Shown piece after piece: positions 2,542 to 38,423 of a DNA stretch of 64,000 nt. A program made the position numbers and the translations under genes. The notes beneath the pieces were generated by a model that was given only the letters and a program-made list of their open reading frames with translations, was not told the origin of the DNA and did no database searches. The DNA comes from an uncultured Bacteroidales bacterium (lineage in GTDB: Bacteria > Bacteroidota > Bacteroidia > Bacteroidales > UBA932): NCBI GenBank assembly GCA_900320545.1, contig ONSU01000004.1, forward strand, positions 1-64,000. Reading direction: 5' to 3'. How positions within the stretch are numbered: position 1 is the first letter of the stretch; every line of letters begins with the position of its first letter.

Positions 2542-2728
2542 TAGCGCAACTAAGCGATTATGTAAAATATACTTCACAAATTTGCAAAACACATTTTTGA
2601 AAAATGAATTACGAAAGATAATACCTAGCCATATTGAAGAGTCGGATGGCGGAGAAAAGAGATTGGTGGAGAAACTCACGGCGTGTGGAAATATAGAGAA
2701 TAATAACGAAATGTTTTAATGGTTGTTT

Positions 2729-4321: not shown

Positions 4322-4324
4322 GTT

Positions 4325-5209: not shown

Positions 5210-5216
5210 AGCATAT

Positions 5217-6155: not shown

Positions 6156-6158
6156 AAC

Positions 6159-6692: not shown

Positions 6693-6762
6693 TTTTTCTT
6701 AGCAAACAGGTAACGATTCGAAAAAAAGTCGGTATTACTAAGAAAGCAAAGAATAAAAAAAT

Positions 6763-7413: not shown

Positions 7414-7431
7414 ATCCCCATGCACACTTTC

Positions 7432-7493
7432 GGTTAGTCTAATAACCTTTTTCTTTAATTTTTTGGTTATTATACTAACCTTTTTTATCTTTG
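7432..7493 (+). promoter_or_regulatory. Paired palindromic operators and TAnnTTTG promoter of the ATPase gene
   Basis: GGTTAGTCTAATAACC (7432-7447) and GGTTATTATACTAACC (7465-7480) are near-perfect reverse complements of each other (15 of 16), and each is itself a GGTTA-N6-TAACC palindrome. They start 33 bases apart, about three helical turns. A -33 TTTG (7462-7465) touches the second copy, and the -7 TATCTTTG is at 7486-7493 with 20 bases between. The ATG follows at 7511. The layout suggests a repressor dimer pair covering the promoter. Confidence 0.6.
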
Positions 7494-7510
7494 TATAAAA
7501 CTTAAGGGAA

Positions 7511-8707: not shown

Positions 8708-8728
8708 AATCAGACTGGAAATAGACAT

Positions 8729-9082
8729 ATGAGTATTACACAGGAAGAATTCCGCAAAAGAATTCACGAAATCATCCAGGACAAGATATTCTTCTCCAAC
8801 ATCAGCAACAACCCTGTGGAGGTGGTGGAGAAACTCCCGGAAGAGATTGTGCCCGGCAAAGTGTTATTTGATGGTTTGATGCTCTTTGACGGCATAGAGG
8901 GCATCGAGGACGACATCCAGCAGATGAACTCCTTTACCAAGGACGGCGAAAGGGTGAATCTGGAAGATTACTATACGGACAACGGCGCCTTCGAGGATGA
9001 CGGAAAGGACCGCTTCCTGGCGGCGCTTGAGCGCCTTATGACCCTTACGGAGTTTCTGAAATTTATGAGGAATCAAAAATAA
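8729..9082 (+). CDS. Small acidic hypothetical protein
   Basis: A 117-residue helical, acidic protein (start MSITQEEFRKRIHEII) lying 21 bases after the ATPase and 11 bases before the next gene, so probably co-transcribed with both. No family, signal peptide or membrane segment recognised. Confidence 0.5.
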   Translation: MSITQEEFRKRIHEIIQDKIFFSNISNNPVEVVEKLPEEIVPGKVLFDGLMLFDGIEGIEDDIQQMNSFTKDGERVNLEDYYTDNGAFEDDGKDRFLAALERLMTLTEFLKFMRNQK

Positions 9083-9093
9083 ACAACTTATTT

Positions 9094-10140: not shown

Positions 10141-10179
10141 GGCGTTCCCACTCCCCTCACGAAACTAAATGACAACACT

Positions 10180-22938: not shown

Positions 22939-24837
22939 TTACATATGTGTAAGTATATTATTTCCTTTATTTAAGAGTGCGCATACATCTTTAAAATGAT
23001 CATTTACTTGAGTCCCTCCCCACATACCTCGATAATCTCTTGTCATCTTATACATGATTCTCCTTTTAGGCTGAAGACCATCTAATGTCGTTGATGCTTT
23101 TTCTTTTGGAGCCTTGTCCTTTAAACTAGAATTTTTACGTCGACTTATTAAACACAAGTTGCCCAAATTGTCTATATTTACATCGTCGGTATCTTGATAA
23201 GATTGCGGAAGATGATGTTCTACCGAGTTGTAATAACGGAAATTAAAGTCCTTCACTTCGGAAATATATCTTATTCCATTTCTATTCCCCGTTACTGACT
23301 CAACCCAATATAGATAGTCAATGTAGTTGAATAGAAAGTGTGGAGTATTGACCCCAAGGTTAGCAAAAGAACAATTCGGCGCAGCCTTTTCGCCATCGAA
23401 AAGGTTATTATAATATTTCAAAATATACTCATCAATAAACTGAGAAAAATCTGTCGCATTAATATTTATATCATGAACCCCCGTATGCTCGCTCAACCAA
23501 CAAAGAATATCAAATAGCCAATTCTTCCACTTCTTACTTTTAAATGAAACCTGAAGCATTGATTCTTGTTTAATTATCCGATTCTGAATGTCTGTTATGC
23601 TTTCATTTTCAAAAGGCTCTGGTTCATTGCTATTGCCAAATGTATTTCGAAACTTCAAACTGTTATTGGATGAACGGTATGGTTTCTTTAATGACCATCT
23701 CAGATTATCATCCTCTTCATCATCAGAAGATGCTTTAATAATATATCTATCGAATAAAACCCTAATTAACAGCAACTTCTTAACGAATTCCATCGGATCA
23801 ATTCCGGCCTGGATCTTTTGATAAGAATCCTGCAAGTTATCACCATTAAGAGGGCAAGAATCATTGAACATTTTCATAACTTGCATAAGGAAATTCGGAA
23901 AATCTATTATCGCATTATAACGATTCTCGGGATCATCGTCCTTATACTCCACCGGCTTTTCAACTCTCATCTCGAGTACTTCGTCAATTGTTGCCGGAGA
24001 TTGCGTCCCATCTTGATCTGAATATTGCTCTACATATTCAATATTTAGCTCAGCATAATCTTTACCGAACAAAGGCCAAAACTGGTTTAACCTATAGTCA
24101 TTAAGTGCCTTCTGAATGGGTATCTCCATTTGAGAACAAGCATCCCATATCGCTGAAAAAATAGATCTATTCTTTGTGGTCATCTGTTCTTTTCCCAGCA
24201 TCATAGCTTTGACGATTTCGTGCTCTTGAAGTTGCTCTCCTCGATTATTCATTATTTCAAAATAGGCCGCAACATCAGTATCTTCCGGAAGTTCAGTTCG
24301 AACAAGAATAACTTGATTCTTCACGTAATCAGCAAAATCGGCAATGTTCTTTATTTTGAGGATTGAGAATACTTTATCATCTATGGTAGATACATTTGTG
24401 TGAATATTTTCACTCGCAATAATGTCTAGTGCGTCTACGAACTTGTAGATTTTTGATAGGTCTTTTTTATGGCACTCTTCCGAATAAACCTCTATCCCTG
24501 ACGAATTAAATAAACCCTTGAAGAATTCTTCTACCTCAGGTCTTGAATCATATGATAGTCTTGGCGAAGATAGAATATCCAAAGCTTTGCTGAGTAGGCT
24601 TAGTGTTGTTAGCCGCTGCTGCCCATCTACGACTTCATATTTTCCATCATTATTCCTTAATAAAACCACCAAACTGCCAATGTAATACCTTGAAGTCCTA
24701 TCAGTCTTATAGCTATCATATATATCCTGAATCAACTGGCAAATCTGTTTCTCTCCCCAAGCATAATTCCTTTGATACAAAGGAACCACATAGTCATCCT
24801 GCCAGATTTGTTCAATTGTTTTATTTAACTGTGTCAT
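22939..24837 (-). CDS. DUF262-DUF1524 protein (GmrSD-like type IV restriction enzyme)
   Basis: 632 residues. The DUF262 N-terminal part has VPLYQRNYAWG (about 18-28) and VDGQQRLTTLSLL (about 70-82), the DGQQR motif of the ParB/Srx-like NTPase core. A helical middle is followed by a C-terminal DUF1524 His-Me finger nuclease with VEHHLPQSY and NIDNLGNLCLISRRKNSSL. GmrSD-type enzymes cut modified phage DNA using NTP. Key residues appear intact. It overlaps the upstream DUF262 gene by 17 bases, so the pair is co-translated. Confidence 0.88.
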   Translation of the reverse strand: MTQLNKTIEQIWQDDYVVPLYQRNYAWGEKQICQLIQDIYDSYKTDRTSRYYIGSLVVLLRNNDGKYEVVDGQQRLTTLSLLSKALDILSSPRLSYDSRPEVEEFFKGLFNSSGIEVYSEECHKKDLSKIYKFVDALDIIASENIHTNVSTIDDKVFSILKIKNIADFADYVKNQVILVRTELPEDTDVAAYFEIMNNRGEQLQEHEIVKAMMLGKEQMTTKNRSIFSAIWDACSQMEIPIQKALNDYRLNQFWPLFGKDYAELNIEYVEQYSDQDGTQSPATIDEVLEMRVEKPVEYKDDDPENRYNAIIDFPNFLMQVMKMFNDSCPLNGDNLQDSYQKIQAGIDPMEFVKKLLLIRVLFDRYIIKASSDDEEDDNLRWSLKKPYRSSNNSLKFRNTFGNSNEPEPFENESITDIQNRIIKQESMLQVSFKSKKWKNWLFDILCWLSEHTGVHDININATDFSQFIDEYILKYYNNLFDGEKAAPNCSFANLGVNTPHFLFNYIDYLYWVESVTGNRNGIRYISEVKDFNFRYYNSVEHHLPQSYQDTDDVNIDNLGNLCLISRRKNSSLKDKAPKEKASTTLDGLQPKRRIMYKMTRDYRGMWGGTQVNDHFKDVCALLNKGNNILTHM

Positions 24838-26599
24838 ACTCTGATCCTAATTTAAATACTTCTCTAACTGGAGCAAGATCATAAACCACTTTTATTGTTT
24901 CTGAAATACGATGAGCCTTAACTTTAAATGTGTTCAAATCCGATAAATTTTTTGCATTGTTTATTGTAGTAAAAATCCAACTCACATTTGATGCATTCGC
25001 CATAGTTTTATATCTAACTTGTTTATTTTCTAGTCGGAACCGATATACACATTTGTATATGCTCTTATAGATATGATATACTCCTCTTTCCCCAAATCTA
25101 TCAAACACAAGCATTATTGCCGATTTATAAACTTGACGTACGTATCCATCACCAACGCGACTATCGAATCCGCCATATAAACAATGTTGTCGATAAAACT
25201 CTTTGAATAAGGTCATTTGGGATGTTTCAAGTTCTAAAAAAATGCGTTTGTATATTTCGACATACGTCTCGATATAGTCAAAGAAAGATTTTCCGTTCAA
25301 AATCATCTGATTAATGAAAGAGAACGGATCCAGGTTGTCTGGATCTCCATGAAGAAAACGATTTTTAATTTTAAAGATATTAGGGTTAAGGGAATGAAGA
25401 AGTTGGCAAGCCATATCCTTCTGTAAAAGAAAATTTTGGTATGCAAACTCTAATGAATTCGCTTTGCCAAGAGTCAATCCCTTAAATTCTTCCACGTCAT
25501 TCTTGGTAAAGGTATATGCCCCGTCCCCTCTTGACCAAACACGAGTTCTATACAGTTGTTCGTCAAACAACTGCTTCAAAATATCTTTCCTATTACCTTG
25601 GGGTGAAAGGTACATTGCAGCATTCTCCCATCTAGTATCACAAATAATTTTATCCTCCCTTGAATTTGAAACCATCGCCCTTATATGATATGCTTTGAGC
25701 AGATTATAGGGTTCTAATTCTTTGCCTCTGCCATTCTGCGACTCAAACATTTGAAATGCCTCAGACAGTTTTTTTACTGTTATTTGAACAAATTGGCATG
25801 AGTTAAATAGATAGGCTAAAAAAATTTGTCTGTTAGGCACATTTAAACCAAGCCAAGACTCAATCACATCAGAATTATGACAGATGTTGTAGAAAGAGTC
25901 TGTATGATTATATTTCAATTCCGGTAGCGTGCCCGTATAACCCAAACACTTCATAAGAAGGATAAGTGTAGTGATTCGTTGTTGTCCATCAACAATATTA
26001 AAGACAGATTTCTCACAATCCTCATGGAGTATAATTGATCCAATGAGATAATGCCGTTTCCCCTCACTCAAACTGTTGTTGATATCATTCAGAAGTTGGA
26101 ACACATTTTTCTCACACCATCTATATGGACGCTGATATTCGGGAATGGCCAAATCTTTGTTAAACAATTCGTCAAAATATACATAGTGAGCATCAATCGG
26201 AAACTCATCGTTTTCTGAAATTAGGGTATTTTCAAAACATTGTGATTCGAAACCAAGAATGTGCGGCTCCATTATATATCGTATCGTTCTAAAAGCCTCC
26301 ATAACTTCTTCACTACTATCAAGAGAGCGCTCTAAAGTCCAGCGACAATCATACCGTCCCCAATGATTGCCAGTAATACTGGGATCCTTAAGATTCTTCC
26401 TTAGGTAATCTCTTAATGGACGCCAGTTACCTCCTTCAATATCTAGATGGACTTTATCAGCATTATATTCATAATGAAGATATTGGCCTAAGCAAGTCCC
26501 TGCTTGAATATAGCAATAGCCATTCCCCCAGTAATATGGACTGCCGGGGAATTCAGATTCCGCAAATTGCACGAATTCTTCCTTTGTAATATTGTACAT
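24821..26599 (-). CDS. DUF262 protein lacking the HNH domain, with extra N-terminal domain
   Basis: 592 residues. The first 115 or so form a domain (HYEYNADKVHLDIEGGNWR, YDCRWTLERSLD) resembling DUF4268-like or nuclease-associated modules. DUF262 follows with IPEYQRPYRWCE and VDGQQRITTLILL. The C-terminal third is helical and lacks the DUF1524 H-H/N pattern, so cleavage would have to come from the partner protein at 22939-24837. Two-gene DUF262 pairs of complementary type are known from defence islands. The start at 26599 follows an AT-rich gap. Confidence 0.8.
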   Translation of the reverse strand: MYNITKEEFVQFAESEFPGSPYYWGNGYCYIQAGTCLGQYLHYEYNADKVHLDIEGGNWRPLRDYLRKNLKDPSITGNHWGRYDCRWTLERSLDSSEEVMEAFRTIRYIMEPHILGFESQCFENTLISENDEFPIDAHYVYFDELFNKDLAIPEYQRPYRWCEKNVFQLLNDINNSLSEGKRHYLIGSIILHEDCEKSVFNIVDGQQRITTLILLMKCLGYTGTLPELKYNHTDSFYNICHNSDVIESWLGLNVPNRQIFLAYLFNSCQFVQITVKKLSEAFQMFESQNGRGKELEPYNLLKAYHIRAMVSNSREDKIICDTRWENAAMYLSPQGNRKDILKQLFDEQLYRTRVWSRGDGAYTFTKNDVEEFKGLTLGKANSLEFAYQNFLLQKDMACQLLHSLNPNIFKIKNRFLHGDPDNLDPFSFINQMILNGKSFFDYIETYVEIYKRIFLELETSQMTLFKEFYRQHCLYGGFDSRVGDGYVRQVYKSAIMLVFDRFGERGVYHIYKSIYKCVYRFRLENKQVRYKTMANASNVSWIFTTINNAKNLSDLNTFKVKAHRISETIKVVYDLAPVREVFKLGSEYDTVK

Positions 26600-26839
26600 A
26601 GCGTTGTGTTTCTTACACGTAATAGAAAGGACAAATTTATTGATTTTTTCAACACCTTTGTAATTCCCTTCCTATTTTATTAAGATAAAAGGTTTTTCGG
26701 CAAATTATTGGCAATAATATAAAATGGCCATAAGGAGCGCCTCTCATCTCCGTATGTTTCGACGGGGGCCTTGAGCGCAGGATCGCCTCGGGACTCATGT
26801 CTCCTGCAGAGGACTGATTTCCTCGCCGCGGCTTCCCTC
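26600..26839. other. Intergenic region without a recognisable gene
   Basis: A 240-base gap between the start of the DUF262 gene and the end of the DnaB-like gene. The left part (26600-26720) is AT-rich and probably holds the DUF262 promoter. The right part (26730-26839) is GC-rich like the DnaB-like gene. Short leftward reading frames here look non-coding. No RNA gene recognised. Confidence 0.4.
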
Positions 26840-27286
26840 CTAAGGATTCTCCTGGTCCAAGGAATCGAAGAATGATTCGTCCACGACGCTCGAGAGGACA
26901 ATCGTGCATCCGAGGGGTTTCGCCCAGTTTTCGAGCAGGCTCTGCGTCTCGGCGTCCAGCGTGCCCGGGACACCTTCGATGACGATTGCGCGAACGAAGC
27001 GGCGGTTGACCATTCCCTTGGCTTTGCGGAGGATGACCTGGAGGTCGGGGTTCTTTTGGTCGATGGTGTATAGGCGGGCAACGGAGGAGCGGTTGTCCAC
27101 GAGCCCCTTCAGGGCCTCGCTGCGCCTGGTGAGGGAGAAGAACGCCACGTTGGTGTTCCAGTCATTCAGGAGCTCGGAGATCTCCTGGGCGACGTAGAAG
27201 AGGGATGCCACCTCGTCCGTGGTGCGGATGTGCTCCACCGCGCCAATCTCGAAGCCGGGAATCTGATTGAGGATTTCTTTTGCCAT
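26840..27286 (-). CDS. DnaB-like RecA-fold protein without Walker A (candidate helicase mimic)
   Basis: 148 residues. The order of motifs follows the DnaB helicase C-terminal domain: GFEIGAVEHI where DnaB has GFxxLDxxTSG; VAFFSL at 47-52, the hallmark of DnaB (VAFFSLEMS); a helix and RKAKGMV parallel to LRAKCRRLV; AIVIEG at 100-105 in place of the Walker B IMIDYLQL; and TIVLSSVVDES in place of PIIALSQLNRS. Walker A is gone (RTTDEVAS occupies the RPSMGKTA position) and the Walker B Asp is Glu104. The N-terminal primase-interacting domain and C-terminal loops are absent. It carries the shared operator at 27315-27347. The alignment is by eye; RecA-fold relatives other than DnaB are possible. Confidence 0.55.
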   Translation of the reverse strand: MAKEILNQIPGFEIGAVEHIRTTDEVASLFYVAQEISELLNDWNTNVAFFSLTRRSEALKGLVDNRSSVARLYTIDQKNPDLQVILRKAKGMVNRRFVRAIVIEGVPGTLDAETQSLLENWAKPLGCTIVLSSVVDESFFDSLDQENP

Positions 27287-27304
27287 AGCTTAACTTTTTT
27301 TTGG

Positions 27305-27347
27305 CAAAAATAATCATAGCTTCTGCAAAAATACGGCAGAAGCTATG
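27305..27347 (-). promoter_or_regulatory. Promoter and 12-bp-arm palindromic operator of the DnaB-like gene
   Basis: CATAGCTTCTGC (27315-27326) and GCAGAAGCTATG (27336-27347) form perfect 12-bp arms around nine bases. The core CTGC-N9-GCAG recurs at 29200-29221, 29236-29256 and 31416-31432. A -7 element TATTTTTG on the minus strand lies at 27305-27312, 19 bases before the start codon. A terminator function for the upstream nuclease gene is also possible, since T-rich sequence follows, but the sequence match to the other sites favours an operator. Confidence 0.65.
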
Positions 27348-27374
27348 CACAAAGATTATTTTTTCAAGAAGGGG

Positions 27375-28268
27375 CTAAAGACTTTCTACAACAGATTTAA
27401 AGTCATCCTGACTGCAAAATCTGAATTCGAACGCCGATATCATTTCTCTGATTACGGCCTCGTTATATCCATACCTCCTCACATCATTGAAATACCGGAG
27501 AATGGCGCCATATATTGACTTTATCATAGACGGATCGCACGCATCCTTCTCTTCTTTGTATAATTCCTGAATTCGCTTTTTGTCCGATGGCTTTTCAACA
27601 TACTCCAAGAGTTCCTCTGTCGGACGATAGACAAGGTATATAAAATTCACCTTCTTTTCTTCACCTCTCAGAACCTTATTTGCAATCCCACTAAGGTGAC
27701 AGAGCATTTGTTTCAAATCAAAATGGCCGGAATCTTTCCCATCCCAGGACAAATTAAGATCCCCATTCGGCGCAGAGTATGCTAATCTGCCATTCAGCGT
27801 AGGGACAATGCCATCCAAAAGTTTTTTATGTCCAACACGAAGTTTCGGCTTCGAGTAACCATATAATTCATGACATTTCGCTTCAACATACAGATGCTTC
27901 GACTTAAGATAACCGTCAAGATTAGCCGGAAAACCGCCCAAACCTGTCGTCAGTTGTTTCTCATACTCAAAACCGCCTACTGACTGACCCATTTTATACA
28001 TAAAACGACTTGATGAAGCATACGAGGCCATTTTCGGTGGGTAAGTATGCCCTTTCCTGGTGTATCTTTTCATCTCGCTGCCCTTGCCCTCATCAAAACA
28101 GTCCTTTGCTTCCTGCGGCATCTTTGCAACAAAATCTTCCCATTGTTCATTCGTATAATACACGCTGAATGTGTGCCGCCCAATCTTGTAACCTTCATTC
28201 AAGTTCCCACCTTCGAGCTGTTTCTTTGCCCGATCAAAGATTTCCGTAAGATTCATTTCTTTTTTCAT
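27375..28268 (-). CDS. PD-(D/E)XK-like nuclease (resembles PGN_0703 putative restriction endonuclease)
   Basis: 297 residues. Asp118 and YVEAKCHE (Glu129-x-Lys131) give the D-x10-ExK pattern of PD-(D/E)XK nucleases, and an upstream Glu (FEYEKQL) may complete the site. The protein resembles the PGN_0703-type putative restriction endonucleases known in Bacteroidota (from memory). No target-recognition domain or methyltransferase partner lies nearby. Its start overlaps the WYL gene stop by four bases, so regulator and nuclease are one operon. It is the only apparently intact enzyme of the 26.8-32.1 kb locus. Confidence 0.6.
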   Translation of the reverse strand: MKKEMNLTEIFDRAKKQLEGGNLNEGYKIGRHTFSVYYTNEQWEDFVAKMPQEAKDCFDEGKGSEMKRYTRKGHTYPPKMASYASSSRFMYKMGQSVGGFEYEKQLTTGLGGFPANLDGYLKSKHLYVEAKCHELYGYSKPKLRVGHKKLLDGIVPTLNGRLAYSAPNGDLNLSWDGKDSGHFDLKQMLCHLSGIANKVLRGEEKKVNFIYLVYRPTEELLEYVEKPSDKKRIQELYKEEKDACDPSMIKSIYGAILRYFNDVRRYGYNEAVIREMISAFEFRFCSQDDFKSVVESL

Positions 28269-29173
28269 TTTTTGTATAGTTTTGCTTGGTTTTCAGTAAT
28301 CATTGTCATTTGTTCTCTCAGTTCCTTCGGCTCCAGAACCTCCACATCATCGCCATAGTACAGGATGTCGTGGATGAAGTCATAGTTAGGAGCGAGAAAG
28401 TATGTGAAGATAGAGTACGTGTCCGTAGCCTCGGTCTCCTTCTGGCTGGGGTGCAGGGGGAGGGTGCGGAAGTACTTGGCCTGGCGCGCGGATGCTCTGA
28501 CCGTGATCCCGACCGGCTTTTCGCCCTCATACTGAAGGACGCCGTAGCGGGTCCTAAAGAAGGCCTGCGCGTCAAAACTTTTCGGGATGTTGAACGTCTT
28601 TTCGCTGACAGAGACCTTGTTCATCCTGTCCAGGGCGAAGGAATGCGGTTCCTTATCTATCCCGTGCTTACGCGCGAAGAGGTACCAGCGGCGCTTGTAC
28701 TCCTTCAGGCAGAACGGCTCCAGAAGGAAGTCCCTCGACTCTTCCATCGTGAACCCCTGATAGTTTACATCCAGCATCCGTCCGTCCCGGATGGCCCGGA
28801 TGATGTCCGTGAGGAAACGGTGACTGGACGGCACGCTCTCGAAGAGCAGCCTCGTGCGCAGGCCCACGCTCTCGTTAATGAGGTTGTTCAGGCTCAACGC
28901 CTCCATCATCCAGTCCCGGAGTCCCCGGCCGCCCAGATCCCCCTCGTTCTCGATACGATAGGTGTTGTCGTGCCGGTCACAGACAATGTCTATCCCAAAG
29001 ATGTCCGCGATGGCGGCGACATGGTTCGCGAACGTACGTGTCGCGAGTTCCCTGCCTTCGTCGTTGACGGCGCTGCGCATCCACAGGTCCTTGATTTCGT
29101 TTAAGGTCAGACGTCCCCTGGACTGGAGCGTCTCCAGCAGCCAGATGTAAGATTTGAAATAACTCTTTGCCAT
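28265..29173 (-). CDS. WYL-domain transcriptional regulator (first copy)
   Basis: 302 residues from ATG 29173 (MAKSYFKSY). An N-terminal winged helix (about 5-60, LTLNEIKDLW ... RTFANHVAAIADIFGIDI) is followed by the WYL ligand-binding domain with RMLDVNYQGF and CLKEYKRRWYLFARK, then a WCX-like C-terminal part (PVGITVRAS...ARQAKYFRTLPLHPSQ). Such regulators (BrxR/CapW type) repress defence loci and respond to nucleic-acid or nucleotide signals. It diverges from the DnaE-like gene; two copies of the CTGC-N9-GCAG palindrome lie between. A second homologue is at 37037-37936. Confidence 0.88.
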   Translation of the reverse strand: MAKSYFKSYIWLLETLQSRGRLTLNEIKDLWMRSAVNDEGRELATRTFANHVAAIADIFGIDIVCDRHDNTYRIENEGDLGGRGLRDWMMEALSLNNLINESVGLRTRLLFESVPSSHRFLTDIIRAIRDGRMLDVNYQGFTMEESRDFLLEPFCLKEYKRRWYLFARKHGIDKEPHSFALDRMNKVSVSEKTFNIPKSFDAQAFFRTRYGVLQYEGEKPVGITVRASARQAKYFRTLPLHPSQKETEATDTYSIFTYFLAPNYDFIHDILYYGDDVEVLEPKELREQMTMITENQAKLYKK

Positions 29174-29182
29174 ATACGACTG

Positions 29183-29270
29183 CAAATTTAACGATATATT
29201 CGGCAAAAATGTGGCAGAAGCAAAAATTTTTTATCCTGCCATATTCTTGCAGAAGCACAATGTACCTTTG
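29183..29270. promoter_or_regulatory. Divergent promoters with two operator copies (WYL / DnaE-like)
   Basis: Leftward -7 element TAAATTTG (29183-29190, minus) for the WYL gene and rightward -7 TACCTTTG (29263-29270) for the DnaE-like gene. Between them lie two operators: CGGC-N9-GCAGAAGC ending at 29221 and its inverted counterpart CTGCC...TTGCAGAAGC at 29236-29256. The first matches 19 of 22 bases, and the reverse complement of the second 19 of 21, with the site at 27319-27343. Each operator sits 6-9 bases upstream of its -7 element, where binding would block both promoters, including autoregulation of the WYL gene. Confidence 0.7.
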
Positions 29271-29291
29271 CGTCAGAAAAAAGTTTTAACT

Positions 29292-31370
29292 ATGTCATTT
29301 GCACACTTACACGTACACACCGATTATTCGGTGGACGGGATCGCAAGGATCCCGAAACTTTTCGCCGAAGCCGAGAGACTCGGCCTGCAGGGGCTCGCCA
29401 TCACCGACCACGGGACGATGGCTGGCGTCCCGGCATTCCTCCGAGAGGCGGAGAAACACCCCGGCATCAAACCCGTCGTCGGATGCGAGTTCTACGTCGA
29501 GACGGACACCCGTCTCTGCCACCTCATCCTTCTCGCGAAGGACCTCACCGGATACCACAATCTTGTCCGGCTCTGCTCCTTCGCCCGGCGGGGACCGAAC
29601 GACGCGCGTCCCCGTATCACGCATAACCTCCTGGAGCGGTATCACGGAGGGCTCGTCTGCTCCTCCGCCTGCATCGGCGGGGAAATTCCCCAAGCTATTC
29701 TTGCCGGGAACATCGACAAAGCAAGAGACATCGCCCGGTGGTACAAGGACCTCTTCGGGGAGGACTTCTATCTGGAGGTAGCGCTGCACGCGGGAGGCGA
29801 CGACGTCCCGCTCGCCAGCTGCGACGACCGCGAAGCCTACAACAGGTCAAACGACGGACTCGTCGCGAAGCAGATCACATCCGCTAACGGCATCTTCCGC
29901 CTCGGCGGGGAACTCGGGATAAAGGTCATCGTCACCAACGACGTGCATTTCGTCGGAAAGGACGACGCCATCGCGCAGGACGCCTTCCTCTGCCGCTCCC
30001 ACCGGAAGCGCATCTCGGACCCGGGCCGGATCCGGTACTCACACCTTGAATACCTGAAAAGCGAGGAGGAGATGCGGGCGCTCTATCCTGAGCACCCCGA
30101 GGTCGCGGACAACACGGTCGAGGTCCTTGGGAAGATCTCCCGGTACAGCATCGCGGAGAAGCCCTCTTTCCCGAAGCTCTCGGACAATCCCGACAGGGCG
30201 CTCCTCGACGCCGTCAGCGAAGGCGCCGCCGCCCGCTACGGAGCGGTCACCAGGAGTATCGAGGTGCGGATGCTGCACGAGGTCTCCGCCATCCGGGAAC
30301 GGGGACTGTCGAATTATTTCCTTATGCTCAAGGAGATGGTCGACTGGGCCCGTTCCCAGGGGATCGCCGTGGGGGTCGGGCGGGGTGCATCTCCATCGAG
30401 CATCGTATGCTACTGCCTGGGGATCACGGACGTGGATCCCCTCCGGTACGGACTCCTTTTCGAGCGGTTCCTCCGCTCAAGACACGATCCGTTCCCGCCC
30501 GTCGACATCGACTTTGAGGCAGACCGGAAGGAGGAGGTCATCGGCCACCTGAAGGAACGGTACGGGCAGGACTGCGTGGCTCTGGTCCCCTACTATTGGA
30601 CAATTGGGGAGCACACCGCTTGGGACATCGTTGATATGAATCCGCTGAGAGGCGTCATACGGAATCAGAGCATCTCCGACAATACAGTCATCCTCTCTCC
30701 ATATCCCCTGTGGGAGTGCCTGCCCGTGGAGGTGGCCGAAGGGCTGCCGGACGGAGACCACACGCTGTTATCCCAGTATGACGACCGCGGGGCGGAGGAA
30801 GCCGGCGTCGTAAAGATCAACCTCGTTTCCCTCGGCGTACTGGATGTCATCAAGGAGTCAGTCCGGCTTATCAGGGAGCGGCGCGGGACGGATGTCCGGC
30901 TCGAGGGGATCCCGCTCGATGACAGGGAGACGCTCAAGGTATTCGACTCCGGAGACACCGCCGACATCTTTATGTTCCAGAGCGAGGGCGTCAGGGAATG
31001 GCTAAAGGCGTTCGCTCCGAACACCTTCTCCGACCTGGTGCTGCTCAACGCCCTGTACCGTCCGGGGCCGCTAGAATTCCTTCCCGAGTGCCTGGCCCGG
31101 AAACGCGGGGAAGAGAAAGTGGTTTATGAGAGCCCGGGGCTGGAGGACATCCTCTCCGAATCCTACGGCCTCCCCGCATACCAGGAGCAAATCATGCGTA
31201 TCAATGACCTCGTTGGACTTGAACCAAAGGATTCGGACAAGCACTGGAAAGGCCACTATGCCTTTAACAAGTCCCACTCGGTCTGCTACACTCTCCTTGC
31301 CTTCCGCTGCGCCTGGCTGAAAGCCCACTACCCCGAGGAGTACGCGCAGGCGTATCGCGCATTCCTTTAA
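29292..31370 (+). CDS. Short DnaE-like protein with damaged polymerase site (candidate replisome mimic)
   Basis: 692 residues against about 1150-1250 for bacterial DnaE. The PHP domain is well kept (HLHVH at 5-9, ITDHG at 37-41, TNDVHF later). The palm keeps GVGRGASPSS in place of GPGRGSAAGS, and VDIDF with Asp405 and Asp407. The third catalytic Asp, in the KFDFLGL or KMDFLGL motif of DnaE, is Asn510 (KINLVSL). After YQEQIMRINDLVG about 50 residues are missing, including the segment usually reading SDKLRKAMGKK, and the chain resumes at YAFNKSHS. It ends soon after LKAHYPEEYAQAYRAFL, lacking the HhH, clamp-binding, OB and tau-binding parts. The frame is uninterrupted. I infer loss of polymerisation with retained PHP domain and replisome surfaces. 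Confidence 0.75.
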   Translation: MSFAHLHVHTDYSVDGIARIPKLFAEAERLGLQGLAITDHGTMAGVPAFLREAEKHPGIKPVVGCEFYVETDTRLCHLILLAKDLTGYHNLVRLCSFARRGPNDARPRITHNLLERYHGGLVCSSACIGGEIPQAILAGNIDKARDIARWYKDLFGEDFYLEVALHAGGDDVPLASCDDREAYNRSNDGLVAKQITSANGIFRLGGELGIKVIVTNDVHFVGKDDAIAQDAFLCRSHRKRISDPGRIRYSHLEYLKSEEEMRALYPEHPEVADNTVEVLGKISRYSIAEKPSFPKLSDNPDRALLDAVSEGAAARYGAVTRSIEVRMLHEVSAIRERGLSNYFLMLKEMVDWARSQGIAVGVGRGASPSSIVCYCLGITDVDPLRYGLLFERFLRSRHDPFPPVDIDFEADRKEEVIGHLKERYGQDCVALVPYYWTIGEHTAWDIVDMNPLRGVIRNQSISDNTVILSPYPLWECLPVEVAEGLPDGDHTLLSQYDDRGAEEAGVVKINLVSLGVLDVIKESVRLIRERRGTDVRLEGIPLDDRETLKVFDSGDTADIFMFQSEGVREWLKAFAPNTFSDLVLLNALYRPGPLEFLPECLARKRGEEKVVYESPGLEDILSESYGLPAYQEQIMRINDLVGLEPKDSDKHWKGHYAFNKSHSVCYTLLAFRCAWLKAHYPEEYAQAYRAFL

Positions 31371-31415
31371 TCTTAGGGCGCGTTATTATGAAGGGTTTTT
31401 ATCTTTGTTTAGGGA

Positions 31416-31450
31416 CTGCTGCGTTTAGGCAGAAAAAATGCTTAAATTTG
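31416..31450 (+). promoter_or_regulatory. Operator and -7 element of the ParE-like gene
   Basis: CTGC (31416-31419) and GCAG (31429-31432) are spaced by nine bases, with GCAGAA extending the right arm, as at the other three sites of the locus. A -7 TAAATTTG follows at 31443-31450, ten bases on, and the ATG at 31472. A second TATCTTTG at 31400-31407 could be another -7 element. This copy is less conserved outside the core than the others. Confidence 0.5.
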
Positions 31451-31471
31451 TAAACACCAACAAAAGAACCT

Positions 31472-32098
31472 ATGGAACAGACTCATAAACTCACAAAAGA
31501 TCAGTTTGATGACAATAGTATCAAGACCCTTGAATGGAACGAGCATATTCAAAAGCGGCCGGAGATGTATATCGGGCAGCTCGGAGATGGCACCGATCCG
31601 GAGGACGGAATATACACTCTGCTAAAGGGGGTTATAGCCTTGGCTGTGGATGAATTCCAAAAGGGTTATGGTAAGGGATTTTCAGTCGAGGTGAAGGAGG
31701 ACTATGCTATCATACGGAATTATGGCAGAGGGATTCCGTTGGACTCCGTTGTTTCGGCGACAAGTGGCATATCCGTTGGGATTGGAGCTAATCCGAAGGA
31801 TGTTTCCGTTCACCCCGTAAAAATGACCAACGCACTTTCCCTTGACTTTTATGTGGCATCTTACCGGGATGGGGAATGTTCCTGGGCCAAGTATGCCAAG
31901 GGGGATCTTCTCGAAAAAGGAATTGAGAAAACGAGCGAAGACAACGGCACCTACATCAAGTTTGTGCCAAATCCTAATGTATTTCCCGGCTATGCCTTCC
32001 AGGAAGGGATAGTAAAAGAGCTTCTCCAAAGAATCGCTCGTCAAAACAAAGGATTGTCCATATCTTTGAACGGGACTCTCGTCCCAGATTCCTTCTGA
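31472..32098 (+). CDS. ParE/GyrB-like GHKL domain lacking ATP-site residues (candidate topoisomerase mimic)
   Basis: 208 residues matching only the N-terminal ATPase domain of Bacteroidota topoisomerase IV subunit B: IKTLEWNEHIQKRPEMYIG (17-35), LGDGTDPEDGIYTLLK, GRGIPL (85-90) and NGTYIKFVPNPNVF. In active enzymes the helix reads EVIDNSIDEF; here it is GVIALAVDEF, so the catalytic Glu, the Asp and the Mg-binding Asn are Gly53, Ala56 and Leu57. The adenine-contacting Asp is Asn83 (RNYGRGIP). The ATP lid GLNGVGT is replaced by a short HPVKMT run (112-123). The transducer, TOPRIM and C-terminal parts are absent. The reading frame is clean, so I infer a selected pseudoenzyme rather than a decayed gene. 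Confidence 0.75.
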   Translation: MEQTHKLTKDQFDDNSIKTLEWNEHIQKRPEMYIGQLGDGTDPEDGIYTLLKGVIALAVDEFQKGYGKGFSVEVKEDYAIIRNYGRGIPLDSVVSATSGISVGIGANPKDVSVHPVKMTNALSLDFYVASYRDGECSWAKYAKGDLLEKGIEKTSEDNGTYIKFVPNPNVFPGYAFQEGIVKELLQRIARQNKGLSISLNGTLVPDSF

Positions 32099-32161
32099 CT
32101 TCCTCGAAATAAGACCCATTGAGAAAGGTGGTGCCTCCGATACATCCTGTGGGTGTCGGAG

Positions 32162-32183
32162 AAGGCAAATATCTTATTGCCTT
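32162..32183. terminator. Bidirectional terminator between convergent genes
   Basis: AAGGCAA (32162-32168) pairs with TTGCCTT (32177-32183) around eight bases. It lies between the ParE-like gene ending at 32098 and the leftward gene ending at 32189. A second weaker hairpin, CTCCGA/TCGGAG, lies just upstream in 32135-32162. Confidence 0.5.
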
Positions 32184-32188
32184 TAAAG

Positions 32189-32935
32189 TCAATCTTCCTT
32201 TGGGAAGAATTCCCGGATTGTGTCTATGATGGAGTTGACATAGAACTCCACATTGGAGCGAATCCCCGGATGATAGGCATCAAGAAGTAAACGGCCGTTA
32301 TATTTATAAAGATTGATGAAACAACGTCCTTCTTCCGGAATTCTCGCAATCGGCTTGGCATCCTCAGGAACAAAGACAGGCCAGCACGTGTCAAAAGTGT
32401 TGCCAAATATAATAACCTGGGGGTTGTATAGTTCAATCTGTTTTATCAGAATCGGCTTCCAACAGGCTTCATAACTCTGGGCAAAGGTGTAGTCTCCCGA
32501 TGTTGTCTGAGCGGGCATTTTGCTTAAATTCAAAATGACCGTTTCCTTCATTACATCGCCCATCTCCGGTTTGTTTCGAATATAATCCATATCCCCATAG
32601 CGCAGTCCATTTCGAAGGCCATACATAGTATATATAATTCTTTGCCATGTAATGTTTTTCTGCCAGTCCCTGTCCTCTCCTAAAAAACCTTCATATAATA
32701 GCCAGCCTCCACCAGTCGGTGTTCCATCTTCCTGAAAATAGTCATATGGTTCTTTTAGAATCCACATAACACGGGGCGAAGAGTTCAAATACTGGGCACA
32801 GTCGGCCACCCCATCTGGAATTGCAGCGATTTTATTCGTTGCCGACCCATTACTCTTGGCTTTAGTATAAATCTCTTTCTGGAGAGAAATCTGTTTTAAG
32901 TTCAACTCCTCCGGTGTCATCATTAGTTTATTCAT
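32189..32935 (-). CDS. Hypothetical protein, possible uracil-DNA-glycosylase-like fold
   Basis: 248 residues. The order VMWILKEPYDYF, ETVILNLSKMPAQ, NPQVIIFGNTFD and LLLDAYHPGIR is reminiscent of the UDG superfamily (an early Pro-Tyr motif, a central strand-Asn motif and a late His-Pro motif), but the residues are not canonical, so the match is weak. It could be a diverged DNA glycosylase acting on modified phage bases. It is the last gene of a leftward trio with 32957-33745 (22-base gap) and 33765-34545. Confidence 0.4.
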   Translation of the reverse strand: MNKLMMTPEELNLKQISLQKEIYTKAKSNGSATNKIAAIPDGVADCAQYLNSSPRVMWILKEPYDYFQEDGTPTGGGWLLYEGFLGEDRDWQKNITWQRIIYTMYGLRNGLRYGDMDYIRNKPEMGDVMKETVILNLSKMPAQTTSGDYTFAQSYEACWKPILIKQIELYNPQVIIFGNTFDTCWPVFVPEDAKPIARIPEEGRCFINLYKYNGRLLLDAYHPGIRSNVEFYVNSIIDTIREFFPKED

Positions 32936-32956: not shown

Positions 32957-33745
32957 TTATTTCAATATCGGATCTCCGCAGTATTGCCTGCATCCGCAGT
33001 CCTTGCATTTGAATCCGGCCCAGACGGCGTCAAACTGGTTCATCGCGGCCTCCACTAACGCGGGCTCATCGGTGAGAATGCCCGCCTCGAAGTTCCGGGT
33101 ACGAGTACTCTTCATCCCGATACCGGCTCCGGTGAGATTGGCGGAACCGATATAGGCCAGCTTGCAATCGAAGATAATCATCTTGAAATGCACCCGTGGG
33201 CAAAGAGCACGCTCCAGGCCGGTGAAAAGCACTGGATACCTGTCGAAGTCCTCGCGAAAATTCGGTCCCGGCTCCTTGGCGTGGATGAGGCGGACCTCCC
33301 TCCCCCGGCTTATGAGGTTGGCCAACACTCCCAGAAAAGGCCTCTCCTCGACGTAGAGGTCCTTAATGTCGGCCGTCCCGATCCAAAGGCTACTATTCAC
33401 CATCGGGACTCGCTCAATAACTTCCTTGAAATGGGCTTCGTCTGCGATGTACTGCGTCATATGTTGCGAATTTAGTGATTTTTGCGGAAACTTCACATCC
33501 GGGAAGAGCGCGGCCGCTCGACGGATGGCGTCGGCCTTGAGTTTCTCAAGGTCGGCATCCAGGTAGTGATCCGGGAACTTCAATTTGATGGTCTTCCTCT
33601 CCGAACTAATCTCGGCCTCCCAGGGGCCGGGCAGTGATTCATACCAGGGGGTCAAGTTAATCGTCCATTCCGTTCCATCGGAATCCTTGAATCCATAGCT
33701 CCACTCATCCAGGACGGTGTCCTCTATCCATTGATGTCGTTTCAT
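32957..33745 (-). CDS. PLD-like (HKD) nuclease-family protein with Cys-rich tail
   Basis: 262 residues. A C-terminal PLDc_2 domain carries one HKD motif, HFKMIIFD...GSANLTGAG, so activity would need a dimer. The tail CKDCGCRQYC has four Cys that may bind zinc. The N-terminal 120 residues hold a Trp-rich beta domain of unknown type. Single-HKD proteins include nucleases of the Nuc/BfiI type and DISARM-associated proteins. It is preceded by the frameshifted gene 33765-34545 at 20 bases, and followed by the UDG-like gene. Confidence 0.7.
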   Translation of the reverse strand: MKRHQWIEDTVLDEWSYGFKDSDGTEWTINLTPWYESLPGPWEAEISSERKTIKLKFPDHYLDADLEKLKADAIRRAAALFPDVKFPQKSLNSQHMTQYIADEAHFKEVIERVPMVNSSLWIGTADIKDLYVEERPFLGVLANLISRGREVRLIHAKEPGPNFREDFDRYPVLFTGLERALCPRVHFKMIIFDCKLAYIGSANLTGAGIGMKSTRTRNFEAGILTDEPALVEAAMNQFDAVWAGFKCKDCGCRQYCGDPILK

Positions 33746-33764: not shown

Positions 33765-34545
33765 TAATCCCCCCAGGTCATCGACCGCTCGGAGAGGATT
33801 TTCCACAAGAGCATCCACGCCTTGTCGAAGCGGAGGCGCTGGGCGTCACTTTAACCTCCACCCCAAAGTCATTCATCCTGAGGAGATCGGGAATCGAATA
33901 CAACTTATTGCAGCAAAGGTCATGAACAGCATGGCAGATGCAGATGTCCTCGAACTCGGGGCGGTTCAGAGGCGCCTCGTCCCAGGATATCCCGTCATCA
34001 AGAAAATTATCCAACCCATACTCCGAAGCCGACATTCCCACACGGTGTCTGAGATTGAATGACGTCTCGCAGAAGGCGCACTCGGGGTCGCCGTCATCCT
34101 CATACAGGTCCGTGAGGATGTCCAGCATATCGGAGAACTGGGATCCGTAGATATTCTCCTCAACATAATCCCGAATGACGGAGTCGACATAGTTGCTAAA
34201 AACGAATTGAAGCGTCGCTTCCACCGTAATATCGTCGTCAAAATCAGGGTCGTGCCCCTCCTTCAGTATTCCCTCATAGAGACTGAGCGCCTTGGCGTGC
34301 ATCTTCCCGGTAAGATCAACAAGTAGATTATTTACTTTGCAGAATCGCTCCACCTCCTCCGGATTGCATTCGAACATCTGGTTAAGCAAGGAGCGGCGTT
34401 GAGTAAGAAGGACTTTCACATCCTCCTTTAATTCCTTCGTCCAATTGATCGGGGGACGGTATGCCCTGTGGCCGCCCACCAAGGGCAACTTAATCAGAAT
34501 CTTCTTCTCAAGGCGAGCGAGTTCTTGTTTTTGTTTTTTTGTCAT
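33765..34545 (-). CDS. Hypothetical protein with probable C-terminal frameshift
   Basis: About 255 residues, helical, with a CAFC...RHRVG and CICHAVHDLCCNKL pattern that may bind metal. In frame, the last 21 residues (from PSASASTRRGC to a stop at 33778) look like out-of-frame GC-rich translation. One frame over, the same bases read RLRFDKAWMLLWKIL and end at TAA 33765-33767, 19 bases before the PLD gene start, which fits an operon. I infer a one-base loss near 33845-33848, or a sequencing error. Family not recognised. Confidence 0.55.
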
Positions 34546-36904: not shown

Positions 36905-36980
36905 ATTTTTACGGTTTTAGAATTCGGGCAAATATACCCTGCCAAACTGCCGAAACTTAGCAATAAAAATTTTATTTTTT

Positions 36981-37015
36981 ATGCCACTTTTTGGCATTTT
37001 TATTTCGTAACTTTG
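36981..37015 (+). promoter_or_regulatory. Palindrome and promoter upstream of the second WYL gene
   Basis: ATGCCA-N5-TGGCAT (36981-36997) is a perfect 6-bp-arm palindrome, ten bases upstream of the -7 TAACTTTG (37008-37015); the ATG is at 37037. Further TGCC/GGCA half-sites lie at 36925-36952 near the promoter of the divergent membrane-protein gene. The spacing differs from the CTGC-N9-GCAG sites of the first WYL locus, suggesting separate specificity. Confidence 0.5.
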
Positions 37016-37036: not shown

Positions 37037-37936
37037 ATGGCAAAGAACTACTTCGACCGTTACATCTGGCTGATCGAGACGATCAACCGCCACGGGTACA
37101 TCACCTACAAGGACATCAGCCGCAAGTGGGCCTTCAGCTCGATGAATACGAAGGGAGAGGATGAACTCCCCCAGCGGACCTTCTTCAACCACATTGATGC
37201 GATCCTCAGCATCTTCGGGATCGAGATCAAGTGCAACCGCAACAGGGGCTATTACATCGCCAACAACGATGAATTCGAGGACTCCGGCATCCGCCGGTGG
37301 ATGCTTGAGTCCCTGTCGCTAAACAATATGCTGACGGAGAGCCGCGATATGCGGGACCGAATCCTCTTCGAGGAAGTTCCTTCCAGCAAGCAGTGGCTCC
37401 CGGTCATCGTGAACGCGATGAAAGACGGGAAAACCGTTGAAATGACCTATCAGAGTTTTTCCTCCGACGAGCCCTACACCTTCGAGGCACACCCCTGGTG
37501 CCTAAAGCTCTTCAAACAGCGGTGGTACGTACTGGCCCAAAGCGGCCGGCACAAGGAGCCGCGCGTCTACTCCCTGGACCGCATCCACGACGTGTGGGAG
37601 ACAGAGGGTACGCTGAAGGTCCCGAAGAAGTTCAACGCGCAGGAGTTCTTCAGCCATTTCTTCGGGATCATTGTCGACGAGCGCAAGCCGGTCCGGGTAA
37701 CGCTGAAAGTGTATGGCAACCAGGTGAAATACTTCCGGTCGCTGCCGCTTCATCATACGCAAAAGGAGGTTGAGACCGCAGACACATACTCCGTCTTCGA
37801 GTATTTCCTTGTCCCCACCTTCGATTTCCGGCAGGAGGTCCTCCGCTACGGCCCCGCCGTCGAGGTCCTCGCGCCCAAAGATTTCCGGGAGGAAATCCGC
37901 ACCGACATTAAAGCTATGTTTGGGCGCTATGACTGA
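37037..37936 (+). CDS. WYL-domain transcriptional regulator (second copy)
   Basis: 299 residues from ATG 37037 (MAKNYFDRYIW). A winged helix (ITYKDISRKW ... QRTFFNHIDAILSIFGIEI), a WYL domain (KTVEMTYQSF, CLKLFKQRWYVLAQ) and a C-terminal WCX-like part (PVRVTLKVYGNQVKYFRSLPL) align end to end with the product of 28265-29173, so the two are paralogues. It overlaps the following exonuclease gene by eight bases. Regulators of this type often control phage-defence genes; the targets here may be the exonuclease and the divergent membrane protein. Confidence 0.88.
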   Translation: MAKNYFDRYIWLIETINRHGYITYKDISRKWAFSSMNTKGEDELPQRTFFNHIDAILSIFGIEIKCNRNRGYYIANNDEFEDSGIRRWMLESLSLNNMLTESRDMRDRILFEEVPSSKQWLPVIVNAMKDGKTVEMTYQSFSSDEPYTFEAHPWCLKLFKQRWYVLAQSGRHKEPRVYSLDRIHDVWETEGTLKVPKKFNAQEFFSHFFGIIVDERKPVRVTLKVYGNQVKYFRSLPLHHTQKEVETADTYSVFEYFLVPTFDFRQEVLRYGPAVEVLAPKDFREEIRTDIKAMFGRYD

Positions 37937-38423
37937 TTTCGCGGCGATCGATTTCGAGACGGCGAACGAACAGCCGTGCAGCGTATGCAGCGTCGGGGTG
38001 GTCATTGTCCGGAACGGGCAGGTCGTGTACCGTTTCTACAGTCTCATCCATCCCGAGCCGGAGTACTACCAGTGGTTCTGCCAGCGGGTGCACGGGCTCT
38101 CGGAGGAGGATACGGATGAAGCGCCTCTCTTCCCGGAGGTCTGGTCACAAATTGAGCCGCTTATCGAAGGACTTCCCCTCGTTGCGCACAACGCGCGATT
38201 CGACGAGGGATGCCTGAAGGCCGTTCACCAGGTCTACCGGATGGACTACCCGGACTATATCTTCCACGATACCCTTGCTGCCTCGCGGCGGCATTTCGGC
38301 TGCCTTCTTCCCAACCACCAGCTCCAGACGGTCTCCGCCGCCTGCGGCTACGACCTCACCCACCACCACCACGCCCTCGCCGACGCGGAGGCCTGCGCGG
38401 CTATAGCGATGCAAATCCTTTAA
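37929..38423 (+). CDS. DnaQ-like 3'-5' exonuclease (DEDDh)
   Basis: 164 residues. Exo I is AIDFETA, Exo II is LVAHNARFDEGCL and Exo III is HHALADAEACA, giving a complete DEDDh site, so it should be an active 3'-5' exonuclease of the PolC/epsilon type. ATG 37929 lies inside the end of the WYL gene (8-base overlap), indicating coupled translation. Unlike the pseudoenzymes at 26.8-32.1 kb, nothing is missing. It may trim DNA or RNA ends in a WYL-controlled response, or act as a general proofreading-like nuclease. Confidence 0.87.
   Translation: MTDFAAIDFETANEQPCSVCSVGVVIVRNGQVVYRFYSLIHPEPEYYQWFCQRVHGLSEEDTDEAPLFPEVWSQIEPLIEGLPLVAHNARFDEGCLKAVHQVYRMDYPDYIFHDTLAASRRHFGCLLPNHQLQTVSAACGYDLTHHHHALADAEACAAIAMQIL

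What the first reader, a model, noticed from the sequence alone, without database searches (positions are those of the whole stretch)
26840..32098. WYL-controlled locus of three apparent replication pseudoenzymes plus a nuclease
Seen: five genes in two divergent groups (DnaB-like, PD-(D/E)XK-like and WYL leftward; DnaE-like and ParE-like rightward). Three resemble parts of the helicase, the replicative polymerase and topoisomerase IV, and each has lost the residues needed for catalysis while its frame stays open. Known: WYL regulators of the BrxR/CapW type commonly repress phage-defence loci. Inferred: the proteins act as decoys, sensors or dominant-negative partners that bind replication proteins of host or phage, with the nuclease as possible effector. 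I know of no described system with this composition.
Basis: partly seen in the sequence, partly recalled or inferred. Interest (0 to 1): 0.95.

Follow-up and report, generated by a model that had tools for sequence, protein, structure and literature searches.

The report
Dead replisome-protein mimics in WYL regulons
A group of gut bacteria keeps what look like catalytically dead copies of parts of its own DNA-copying machinery (helicase, polymerase, topoisomerase) under WYL-type regulators and beside probable nucleases; selection preserves them, which suggests that they work by binding rather than by catalysis, perhaps to stop the replication of invading or damaged DNA.

Summary
The window has DnaB-like (148 aa), DnaE-like (692 aa) and ParE-like (208 aa) proteins that have lost their main active sites, beside a probable PD-(D/E)XK nuclease and a WYL regulator. 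The DnaB homology is probable only. They are not random fragments. In 300 genomes of the genus, 9 of 10 DnaB-like places lie beside the same WYL. Stand-alone ParE-like genes on long contigs have a WYL of that subfamily within 8 kb in 9 of 9 cases. At least one mimic stands in 12 of 14 WYL loci. dN/dS is 0.03-0.19 for 31 ParE-like pairs and 0.12-0.13 for close DnaB- and DnaE-like pairs. WYL, DnaB-like and DnaE-like promoters share an operator exactly 7 nt from TAnnTTTG (22 of 22 found). A related operator precedes a second WYL and some ParE-like genes. The WYL is nearer to DriD-like proteins than to BrxR/CapW. The DnaE-like protein keeps its PHP motifs. Best reading: inducible, host-derived replisome mimics that act by binding, in a defence-like island. 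Function is untested.

The parts
26840..27286 (-). DnaB-like mimic, 148 aa, RecA-type core without Walker A (homology probable)
   Evidence: hhalign to own DnaB P 9e-5 to 5e-4; family profile in 9 of 300 genus genomes, 9 of 10 places beside WYL
27320..27338 (+). type-1 operator (1 mismatch) of the DnaB-like promoter, 7 nt from TATTTTTG
27375..28268 (-). probable PD-(D/E)XK nuclease, 297 aa
   Evidence: E..D..ExK motif invariant in 5 of 5 homologues; no significant HMM or PDB match
28265..29173 (-). WYL-WCX transcription factor (WYL1), 302 aa
   Evidence: PF13280 E 3e-12, PF25583 E 6e-11; PDB relatives; start
29198..29216 (+). type-1 operator (1 mismatch) of the WYL promoter, 7 nt from TAAATTTG
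29237..29255 (-). type-1 operator, the only exact match in the genome, of the DnaE-like promoter, 7 nt from TACCTTTG
29292..31370 (+). DnaE-like mimic, 692 aa: PHP motifs kept, polymerase Asp D401->P and D555->N, ends after the fingers
31472..32098 (+). ParE-like mimic, 208 aa: N-terminal ATPase (GHKL) part only, catalytic Glu, Asn and ATP lid lost
32044..32223 (-). remnant of a metallophosphoesterase that is longer in sister loci
   Evidence: profile E 6e-4, 60-residue frame
32189..32935 (-). UDG-like protein, 248 aa; weak match, with a relative near the ParE-like gene of L045
   Evidence: PF03167 E 0.27, below cut-off; 46% relative in L045
32957..33745 (-). PLD-family nuclease
   Evidence: PF13091 E 6e-11, PF00614 E 1e-6
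33778..34545 (-). unknown protein; relatives carry the type-2 promoter in four sister loci
22939..26599 (-). two genes (22939-24837 and 24821-26599) of PADLOC types HEC-06/Orf5 (DUF262/GmrSD-like is my recalled label); a type-1 site with 1 mismatch at 26695-26713 lacks a full -7 box
   Evidence: PADLOC E 2e-28 and 4e-30
36948..36996 (.). two type-2 operators (36948, 1 mismatch; 36982, exact) between the gene at 36038 and WYL2, each 11 nt from a -7 box
37037..37936 (+). second WYL regulator (WYL2), 299 aa
   Evidence: PF13280 E 2e-15
37932..38423 (+). DnaQ-like exonuclease in tandem with WYL2; the same pair stands in 6 of 7 sister ParE-like loci (L042-L046, L048)
   Evidence: PF00929 E 1e-16

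Best explanation
This is one copy of a family of WYL-regulated loci, found in a single genus in my samples, that carry non-catalytic copies of the host's own replication proteins. Shown by computation: the ParE-like family and close DnaB-like and DnaE-like pairs are under purifying selection; DnaB-like and DnaE-like genes share the operator and promoter layout of their WYL gene; some ParE-like genes share that of a second WYL. Inferred: the WYL protein, related to ssDNA-activated regulators, senses ssDNA from collapsed forks or from replicating phage or plasmid DNA and switches the promoters on. The mimics then enter or block complexes of the replicative helicase, Pol III and topoisomerase IV (dominant-negative), while the nuclease, and perhaps the mimic's own PHP domain, attack DNA. 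The result would be an arrest of replication that protects the population or the damaged cell.
For: Selection: dN/dS 0.03-0.19 in 31 ParE-like pairs, 0.13 for the 294-aa DnaE-like pair, 0.12 for the close DnaB-like pair. Co-location: 8 of 9 DnaB-like genomes are among the 13 of 300 with this WYL, Fisher P 8e-12; any mimic in 12 of 14 WYL loci; ParE-like within 8 kb of a WYL on 9 of 9 long contigs. Regulon: 22 of 22 type-1 promoters with gap 7 and 32 of 32 type-2 with gap 11; with exact operators 14 and 9 real promoters, 0 in 30 shuffles at any gap from 0 to 30. Host origin: the DnaE-like protein is nearer to own DnaE (39% over 492, 33% over 276) than to six viral DnaE (27-29%; one 34% over only 174); ten ParE mimics form one clade, 100/100, beside Bacteroidales ParE. 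Shared inactivation: the three PHP-bearing DnaE mimics all lost D401 and have D555->N. Restriction- or nuclease-like neighbours.
Against: No experiment, and no structure model (tool off). No binding partner shown. Activation rather than repression rests on homology and geometry. The 692-aa protein's own dN/dS is saturated, the window's DnaB-like gene gives 0.33-0.48 at dS above 1.1, and the other DnaB-like type gives 0.41. The 294-aa DnaE-like pair has no WYL in the stretches seen (12.0 and 9.3 kb). Relatives of the nuclease in two Clostridia/Bacillota contigs have neither WYL nor mimic in the stretches seen. Type-2 sites with one mismatch are not above chance in the window (6 against a mean of 5.3). 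Some copies are broken: C38 ParE-like, DnaB-like 346-aa homologues in G400 and G582. A sister ParE-like protein (353 aa, L018) keeps most ATP-site residues and a short DnaE of another family (G039) keeps its Asp, so not every truncated copy is dead.
Confidence: 0.4

Rival explanations
1. Decoy or guard: the mimics imitate host replication proteins so that phage proteins which seize or inhibit DnaB, Pol III or topoisomerase IV bind them, which triggers or frees the nuclease.
For: Mimics resemble host more than viral proteins; retained folds with lost catalysis; a nuclease-like gene in 8 of 14 WYL loci.
Against: No trigger link to the nuclease is shown; a WYL-controlled promoter, not a constitutive sensor, seems the switch; the ParE-like family shows strong overall purifying selection (no test for fast-changing contact surfaces was made).
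Confidence: 0.2
2. DNA-damage tolerance or repair cassette: the dead homologues are structural subunits of an accessory replication-repair complex, as the dead ImuA and ImuB serve DnaE2, induced by a DriD/PafBC-like regulator.
For: WYL nearer to DNA-damage regulators than to BrxR/CapW; DnaQ-like exonuclease, SLOG/DprA-like, PIF1-like and metallophosphoesterase genes recur in these loci; PHP motifs kept; ImuA/ImuB precedent (PMC3919608 passage).
Against: Patchy: 9 and 13 of 300 genomes; island with HEC-06/Orf5-type, PLD and PD-(D/E)XK-like genes; the part of DnaE after the fingers, where clamp and tau binding lie (recalled), is absent; no clamp motif was sought.
Confidence: 0.22
3. The mimics are partners or antitoxins of the neighbouring nucleases, holding them inactive or steering them to replication forks.
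For: DnaB-like and nuclease-like genes stand in the same WYL locus in the window, L056, L057, L062 and L066.
Against: The nuclease type changes (two families), none was found in the mimic loci L058, L059, L061 and L065 (L059 is cut), and nuclease relatives occur without mimics.
Confidence: 0.1
4. Decayed fragments of replication genes without function.
For: Some copies are frameshifted or split; the 692-aa gene's selection could not be measured.
Against: dN/dS 0.03-0.19, shared end points, conserved promoters, repeated co-location.
Confidence: 0.04

Closest known systems
BrxR/CapW WYL-controlled defence islands
   Same: WYL regulator with inverted-repeat operators beside restriction-like genes (PMC9122601, abstract and passages)
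   Different: The WYL here scores much lower against BrxR/CapW than against DriD-like entries; the controlled genes are replication-protein mimics, not a known defence system
DriD and PafBC ssDNA-activated WYL regulons
   Same: Closest solved relatives; DriD sites overlap the -35 element at one distance from -10 and its own promoter is divergent (PMC12340889, passages); PafBC is activated by ssDNA (PMC11804915, abstract and passages)
   Different: Target genes differ; ssDNA binding and activation not tested here
ImuA/ImuB-DnaE2 mutasome
   Same: Catalytically dead homologues of DNA-processing enzymes kept as non-enzymatic subunits (PMC3919608 passage)
   Different: There dead RecA and Y-family homologues serve a live DnaE2; here the Pol III homologue itself is dead, with dead DnaB- and ParE-like proteins
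C-family DNA polymerases (DnaE)
   Same: PHP, palm and fingers homology, E 1e-168
   Different: Two of three active-site Asp lost; the 2013 survey removed fragments without an intact active site and calls these Asp absolutely conserved (PMC3919608 passages); the 2026 survey discarded strongly diverged or truncated sequences before its trees (PMC12926913 passage)
GmrSD/DUF262 type IV restriction (label recalled; PADLOC names HEC-06/Orf5)
   Same: Two such genes at the edge of the island
   Different: Replication mimics are not part of GmrSD as I recall it; co-regulation in the window is only suggested

Membership tests
BrxR/CapW regulator | sequence relation to solved BrxR/CapW | tested here: inconclusive
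   CapW E 2e-4 (23.6 bits) and BrxR E 8e-3 (18.5 bits), WYL domain only, against 44-46 bits for DriD-like entries: same superfamily, not nearest
BrxR/CapW regulator | represses the downstream operon | not testable with these tools
   needs reporter assays
DriD/PafBC-like activator | WYL plus WCX domains | tested here: met
   PF13280 and PF25583 above cut-off
DriD/PafBC-like activator | operator at a fixed distance from the core promoter | tested here: met
   gap 7 in 22 of 22 and gap 11 in 32 of 32 promoters that passed the filters
DriD/PafBC-like activator | ssDNA binding switches it on | not testable with these tools
   not measured
C-family DNA polymerase | three active-site Asp (D401, D403, D555) | tested here: not met
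   first Asp is P, A or T and third is N in the three PHP-bearing mimics
PHP phosphoesterase/exonuclease | metal-binding motifs | tested here: met
   five motifs looked at are kept (HLHVHT, ITDHG, GCE, SACIGGE, NDVHF); activity untested
Type IIA topoisomerase ParE/GyrB | ATP-site Glu, Asn and lid; transducer and TOPRIM domains | tested here: not met
   Glu->Gly, Asn and lid lost in the stand-alone mimics aligned; nothing beyond the N-terminal part
DnaB replicative helicase | Walker A/B and N-terminal domain | tested here: not met
   only a 131-column remnant aligns, Walker A lost
PD-(D/E)XK nuclease | E..D..ExK motif | tested here: inconclusive
   motif invariant in 5 of 5 homologues, but no significant profile or PDB match
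Known anti-phage system (PADLOC) | hit of a system model | tested here: not met
   no hit for the DnaB-like, nuclease, DnaE-like or ParE-like protein; WYL and several neighbours do hit single models

The most novel reading that the evidence does not exclude
A dedicated, probably ssDNA-inducible regulon in which bacteria deploy catalytically dead copies of their own replicative helicase, Pol III and topoisomerase IV as protein mimics that jam or bait replication complexes, together with nucleases, as an immune or fork-arrest response: immunity by replisome mimicry.
Probability: 0.4. Interest if true: 0.95.

Novelty: categorically new. Interest (0 to 1): 0.85.

Why it matters
Dead copies of three separate replication enzymes, kept by selection and wired to WYL regulators, would be a new way to control or sabotage replication. 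A large polymerase survey removed copies without an intact active site (PMC3919608, passages), so such proteins are easily overlooked. If they block replication by forming mixed complexes or bait phage proteins, they would show which replisome surfaces phages and hosts fight over, and give ready-made dominant-negative tools. The operator and promoter rule also lets such regulons be read from genome sequence.

Tried and rejected
Random decay or a broken nearby replication island: rejected for the families, not measurable for the 692-aa gene alone. Phage origin: six viral DnaE are more distant than the own DnaE; the ParE-like query confirmed no viral relative (2 pattern stretches, neither confirmed); the nuclease has no match in 50,697 phage records; the island's DNA matches only 10 phage records over 1-2% of the query. 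BrxR/CapW membership: not the nearest. A single five-gene unit: the ParE-like gene has its own promoter of the second type, degenerate in the window. The 294-aa DnaE-like protein across the order: 99 of 295 genomes match at 1e-12, but outside the own genome every listed match is partial and in a frame of 630 aa or more. DnaB-like profile across the order: 1 of 393 genomes, the own one. Plasmids with the DnaE-like protein: 2052 records, all under 60% identity; of the 8 rows shown 5 are annotated dnaE and 3 have no annotation. One-mismatch type-1 sites elsewhere in the genome cannot be told from chance (29 in all against 21 for the reversed motif). Paper searches that listed no such system.

Rows left out of counts: one search printed 31 of 66 ParE-like pairs (those of 70% identity or more), and the frameshifted C38 copy and the 353-aa L018 protein were not in it. 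In the 14 WYL1 loci 26 sites have at most one mismatch and 22 gave a promoter by my filter; the four others are window 12729 and 26695, L059 206 (gene cut by the contig end) and L064 10353. In one search sites without a -7 box or an ORF were not counted, and one of the 32 is the window's type-1 site at 29237 read as type 2. The match list was cut by the tool, so mimic counts from it are lower bounds. The ParE-like loci L038-L041 (contigs of 3.5-8.8 kb) are not in the 9 of 9; one of them (L039) carries a WYL piece. L049 and L053-L055, fetched as possible mimics, proved to be ordinary ParE cut by contig ends; L051 and L052 are likewise pieces of ordinary DnaE at or near contig ends. The profiles were built partly from the same members that they then count.
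Full report
Observation. The five ORFs are real. Pfam finds PHP, a truncated pol3_alpha and the fingers in the DnaE-like protein; NCBIfam finds only the first ~209 residues of GyrB/ParE in the ParE-like one. The DnaB-like 148-aa protein has no meaningful family hit, and a protein search of the own genome finds only itself. Its family profile lists two DnaB chains at ranks 1 and 3 of the PDB, at insignificant E (0.21, 0.51), and aligns collinearly with the own DnaB at P 9e-5 to 5e-4 (probability 33-59%), against P of 0.098 or more for 12 unrelated proteins. A second DnaB-like type (L061, L062, L065) is clearly related to the first (P 1e-8) but does not reach DnaB on its own (P 0.1). A longer DnaB-like protein on contig C38 passes the DnaB_C cut-off (64.5 bits). 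So the DnaB homology of the 148-aa protein is probable, not certain.

Loss of catalysis. Aligned with the own DnaE, the window's protein and two relatives (840 aa in G501, 835 aa in G338) have P, A and T in place of D401 and Asn for D555, while D403 is kept. The E. coli numbers are from PMC3919608 (passages); the mapping is mine. The three form one group in the tree (90/99, in 94% of bootstrap trees, with long branches that can mislead) and keep the five PHP motifs looked at. The ParE-like proteins lost the catalytic Glu (now Gly), the Asn and the ATP lid (roles recalled). The ten stand-alone ones in the tree form one clade, 100/100. Not every short copy is dead: the 353-aa ParE-like protein of L018 keeps most ATP-site residues, and a short DnaE from another family (G039) keeps its Asp.

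Not chance, not decay. In 300 genomes of the genus the DnaB-like profile matches at 10 places in 9 genomes. Nine of the 10 places lie within 2.2 kb of the WYL gene that a separate search found in 13 of 300 genomes at E 1e-90; 8 genomes hold both, Fisher P 8e-12. The profile was built from members first seen beside WYL genes, which favours such members, though whole genomes were searched. Of the 14 WYL loci, 9 have a DnaB-like gene, 5 a DnaE-like gene and 12 at least one; the two without are on contigs of 4.8 and 6.1 kb. Locus L062 repeats the window's layout: DnaB-like, nuclease-like and WYL on one side, DnaE-like divergent. Stand-alone ParE-like genes occur in at least 11 of 300 genomes (list cut). 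On contigs long enough to tell, 9 of 9 have a WYL of the subfamily within 8 kb (window, L017, L042-L048). dN/dS is 0.03-0.19 over 31 ParE-like pairs, which are not independent and in part have high dS, 0.13 for the 294-aa DnaE-like pair and 0.12 for the close DnaB-like pair. More distant DnaB-like pairs, all those with the window's gene among them, give 0.33-0.48, and pairs of the 692-aa protein are saturated. The 294-aa DnaE-like genes have no WYL in the stretches seen.

Regulation. Upstream of WYL1-type genes I found the site CTTCNGCA-N6-TGGCA. The window and 13 sister loci hold 15 exact sites, against a mean of 0.1 in 30 shuffles; the window alone has 5 with at most one mismatch, against a mean of 0.25. 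Of 26 such sites in the 14 loci, 22 pass a simple promoter filter. All 22 lie exactly 7 nt from a TAnnTTTG box (the Bacteroidetes -7 box, recalled) and in one orientation, upstream of WYL (9), DnaB-like (7), DnaE-like (2, plus one small gene leading into a DnaE-like gene), SLOG, AAA+ and one unknown gene (the reversed motif gave 0). In the own genome the only exact site is at the WYL/DnaE-like divergence. Loci with the second WYL use TGCYA-N5-TGGCA, 11 nt from TAnnTTTG in 32 of 32 promoters found, before WYL2-type genes (9), ParE-like genes (4 directly, 2 through a small leading gene, of 13 stand-alone ParE-like genes in these loci), a DUF262-like gene, a 230-aa DnaE-like gene and others (five scrambled motifs gave 0). 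Taken without the -7 box, one-mismatch type-2 sites in the window are not above chance. Both types start 26 nt before the -7 box. The window's ParE-like gene has a degenerate type-2 site at that position. These loci were chosen for carrying WYL or mimics, so the rule is shown for them, not for whole genomes.

Sensor. Against the PDB the WYL family profile scores 44-46 bits with a group of WYL entries over WYL plus WCX (that these include DriD is recalled). PafBC totals 63.7 bits, but from two WYL domains of 29 and 24 bits. CapW scores about 24 and BrxR 18.5 over the WYL domain alone. PafBC is activated by ssDNA (PMC11804915, abstract and passages). DriD sites overlap the -35 element at one distance from -10, with a divergent promoter at its own gene (PMC12340889, passages). 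By analogy I infer activation by ssDNA.

Setting. The island, about 22-38 kb, has lower G+C in its left part (0.36-0.45 at 22-28 kb) and lies in a contig with ribosomal-protein and rpoA-like ORFs (53-64 kb, named by eye). It includes two HEC-06/Orf5-type genes (DUF262/GmrSD-like by recall), a PLD nuclease, an AAA+-like protein of PADLOC type PDC-S01 and the WYL2-DnaQ pair. Six of seven sister ParE-like loci also have the WYL-DnaQ pair. Outside the genus the DnaB-like family was not found (own genome only, of 393). Relatives of the nuclease exist in two Clostridia/Bacillota contigs without WYL or mimic in the stretches seen.

Mechanism. I commit to inducible replisome mimicry: host-derived, dead subunits produced on an ssDNA or fork signal, acting through binding. 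Dominant-negative blocking is my first choice, since the DnaE mimic resembles host more than six viral proteins and the ParE mimic keeps the N-terminal part that forms the dimer (recalled). A decoy for phage inhibitors, and a repair complex like ImuA/ImuB, remain open. Selection, promoter sharing and co-location are shown; sensing, binding and protection are inferred.

Novelty. Searches listed no description of such a set; the library is limited to open-licence PMC papers, and I saw listings, not full texts, in those searches.

Noticed in passing
L017 (G000 contig C38) 7459-8499 and window 32957-33745: The 346-aa DnaB-like protein and the window's PLD nuclease fall into one BLAST cluster; by eye the C-terminal domain of the first matches the N-terminal domain of the second, an accessory domain shared by a helicase mimic and a nuclease.
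   Followed up: partly
L038 and L041: Homologues of the 346-aa DnaB-like protein are split into two ORFs (frameshift or assembly error).
   Followed up: no
L057:17203-18708: A 501-aa DnaB with Walker A apparently kept stands about 7 kb after the WYL gene of this locus; not checked whether it is the host's main DnaB or an extra copy.
   Followed up: no
L056, L057, L060, L061 and L014 (e.g. L060:7133-7645): A small protein with a signal-peptide-like start (~167 aa) recurs in these WYL or mimic loci; function unknown.
   Followed up: no
L042:5754-6005, L043:9415-9666: A small protein with repeated C-x2-C motifs directly precedes the ParE-like gene and carries the type-2 promoter.
   Followed up: no
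L050 (G039 contig C46) 8427-10895: An 822-aa DnaE in another family ends after the fingers like the mimics but keeps the catalytic Asp residues.
   Followed up: partly
window 1-11235: A lower-G+C stretch with several leucine-rich/BspA-like repeat ORFs on one strand (naming by eye).
   Followed up: no
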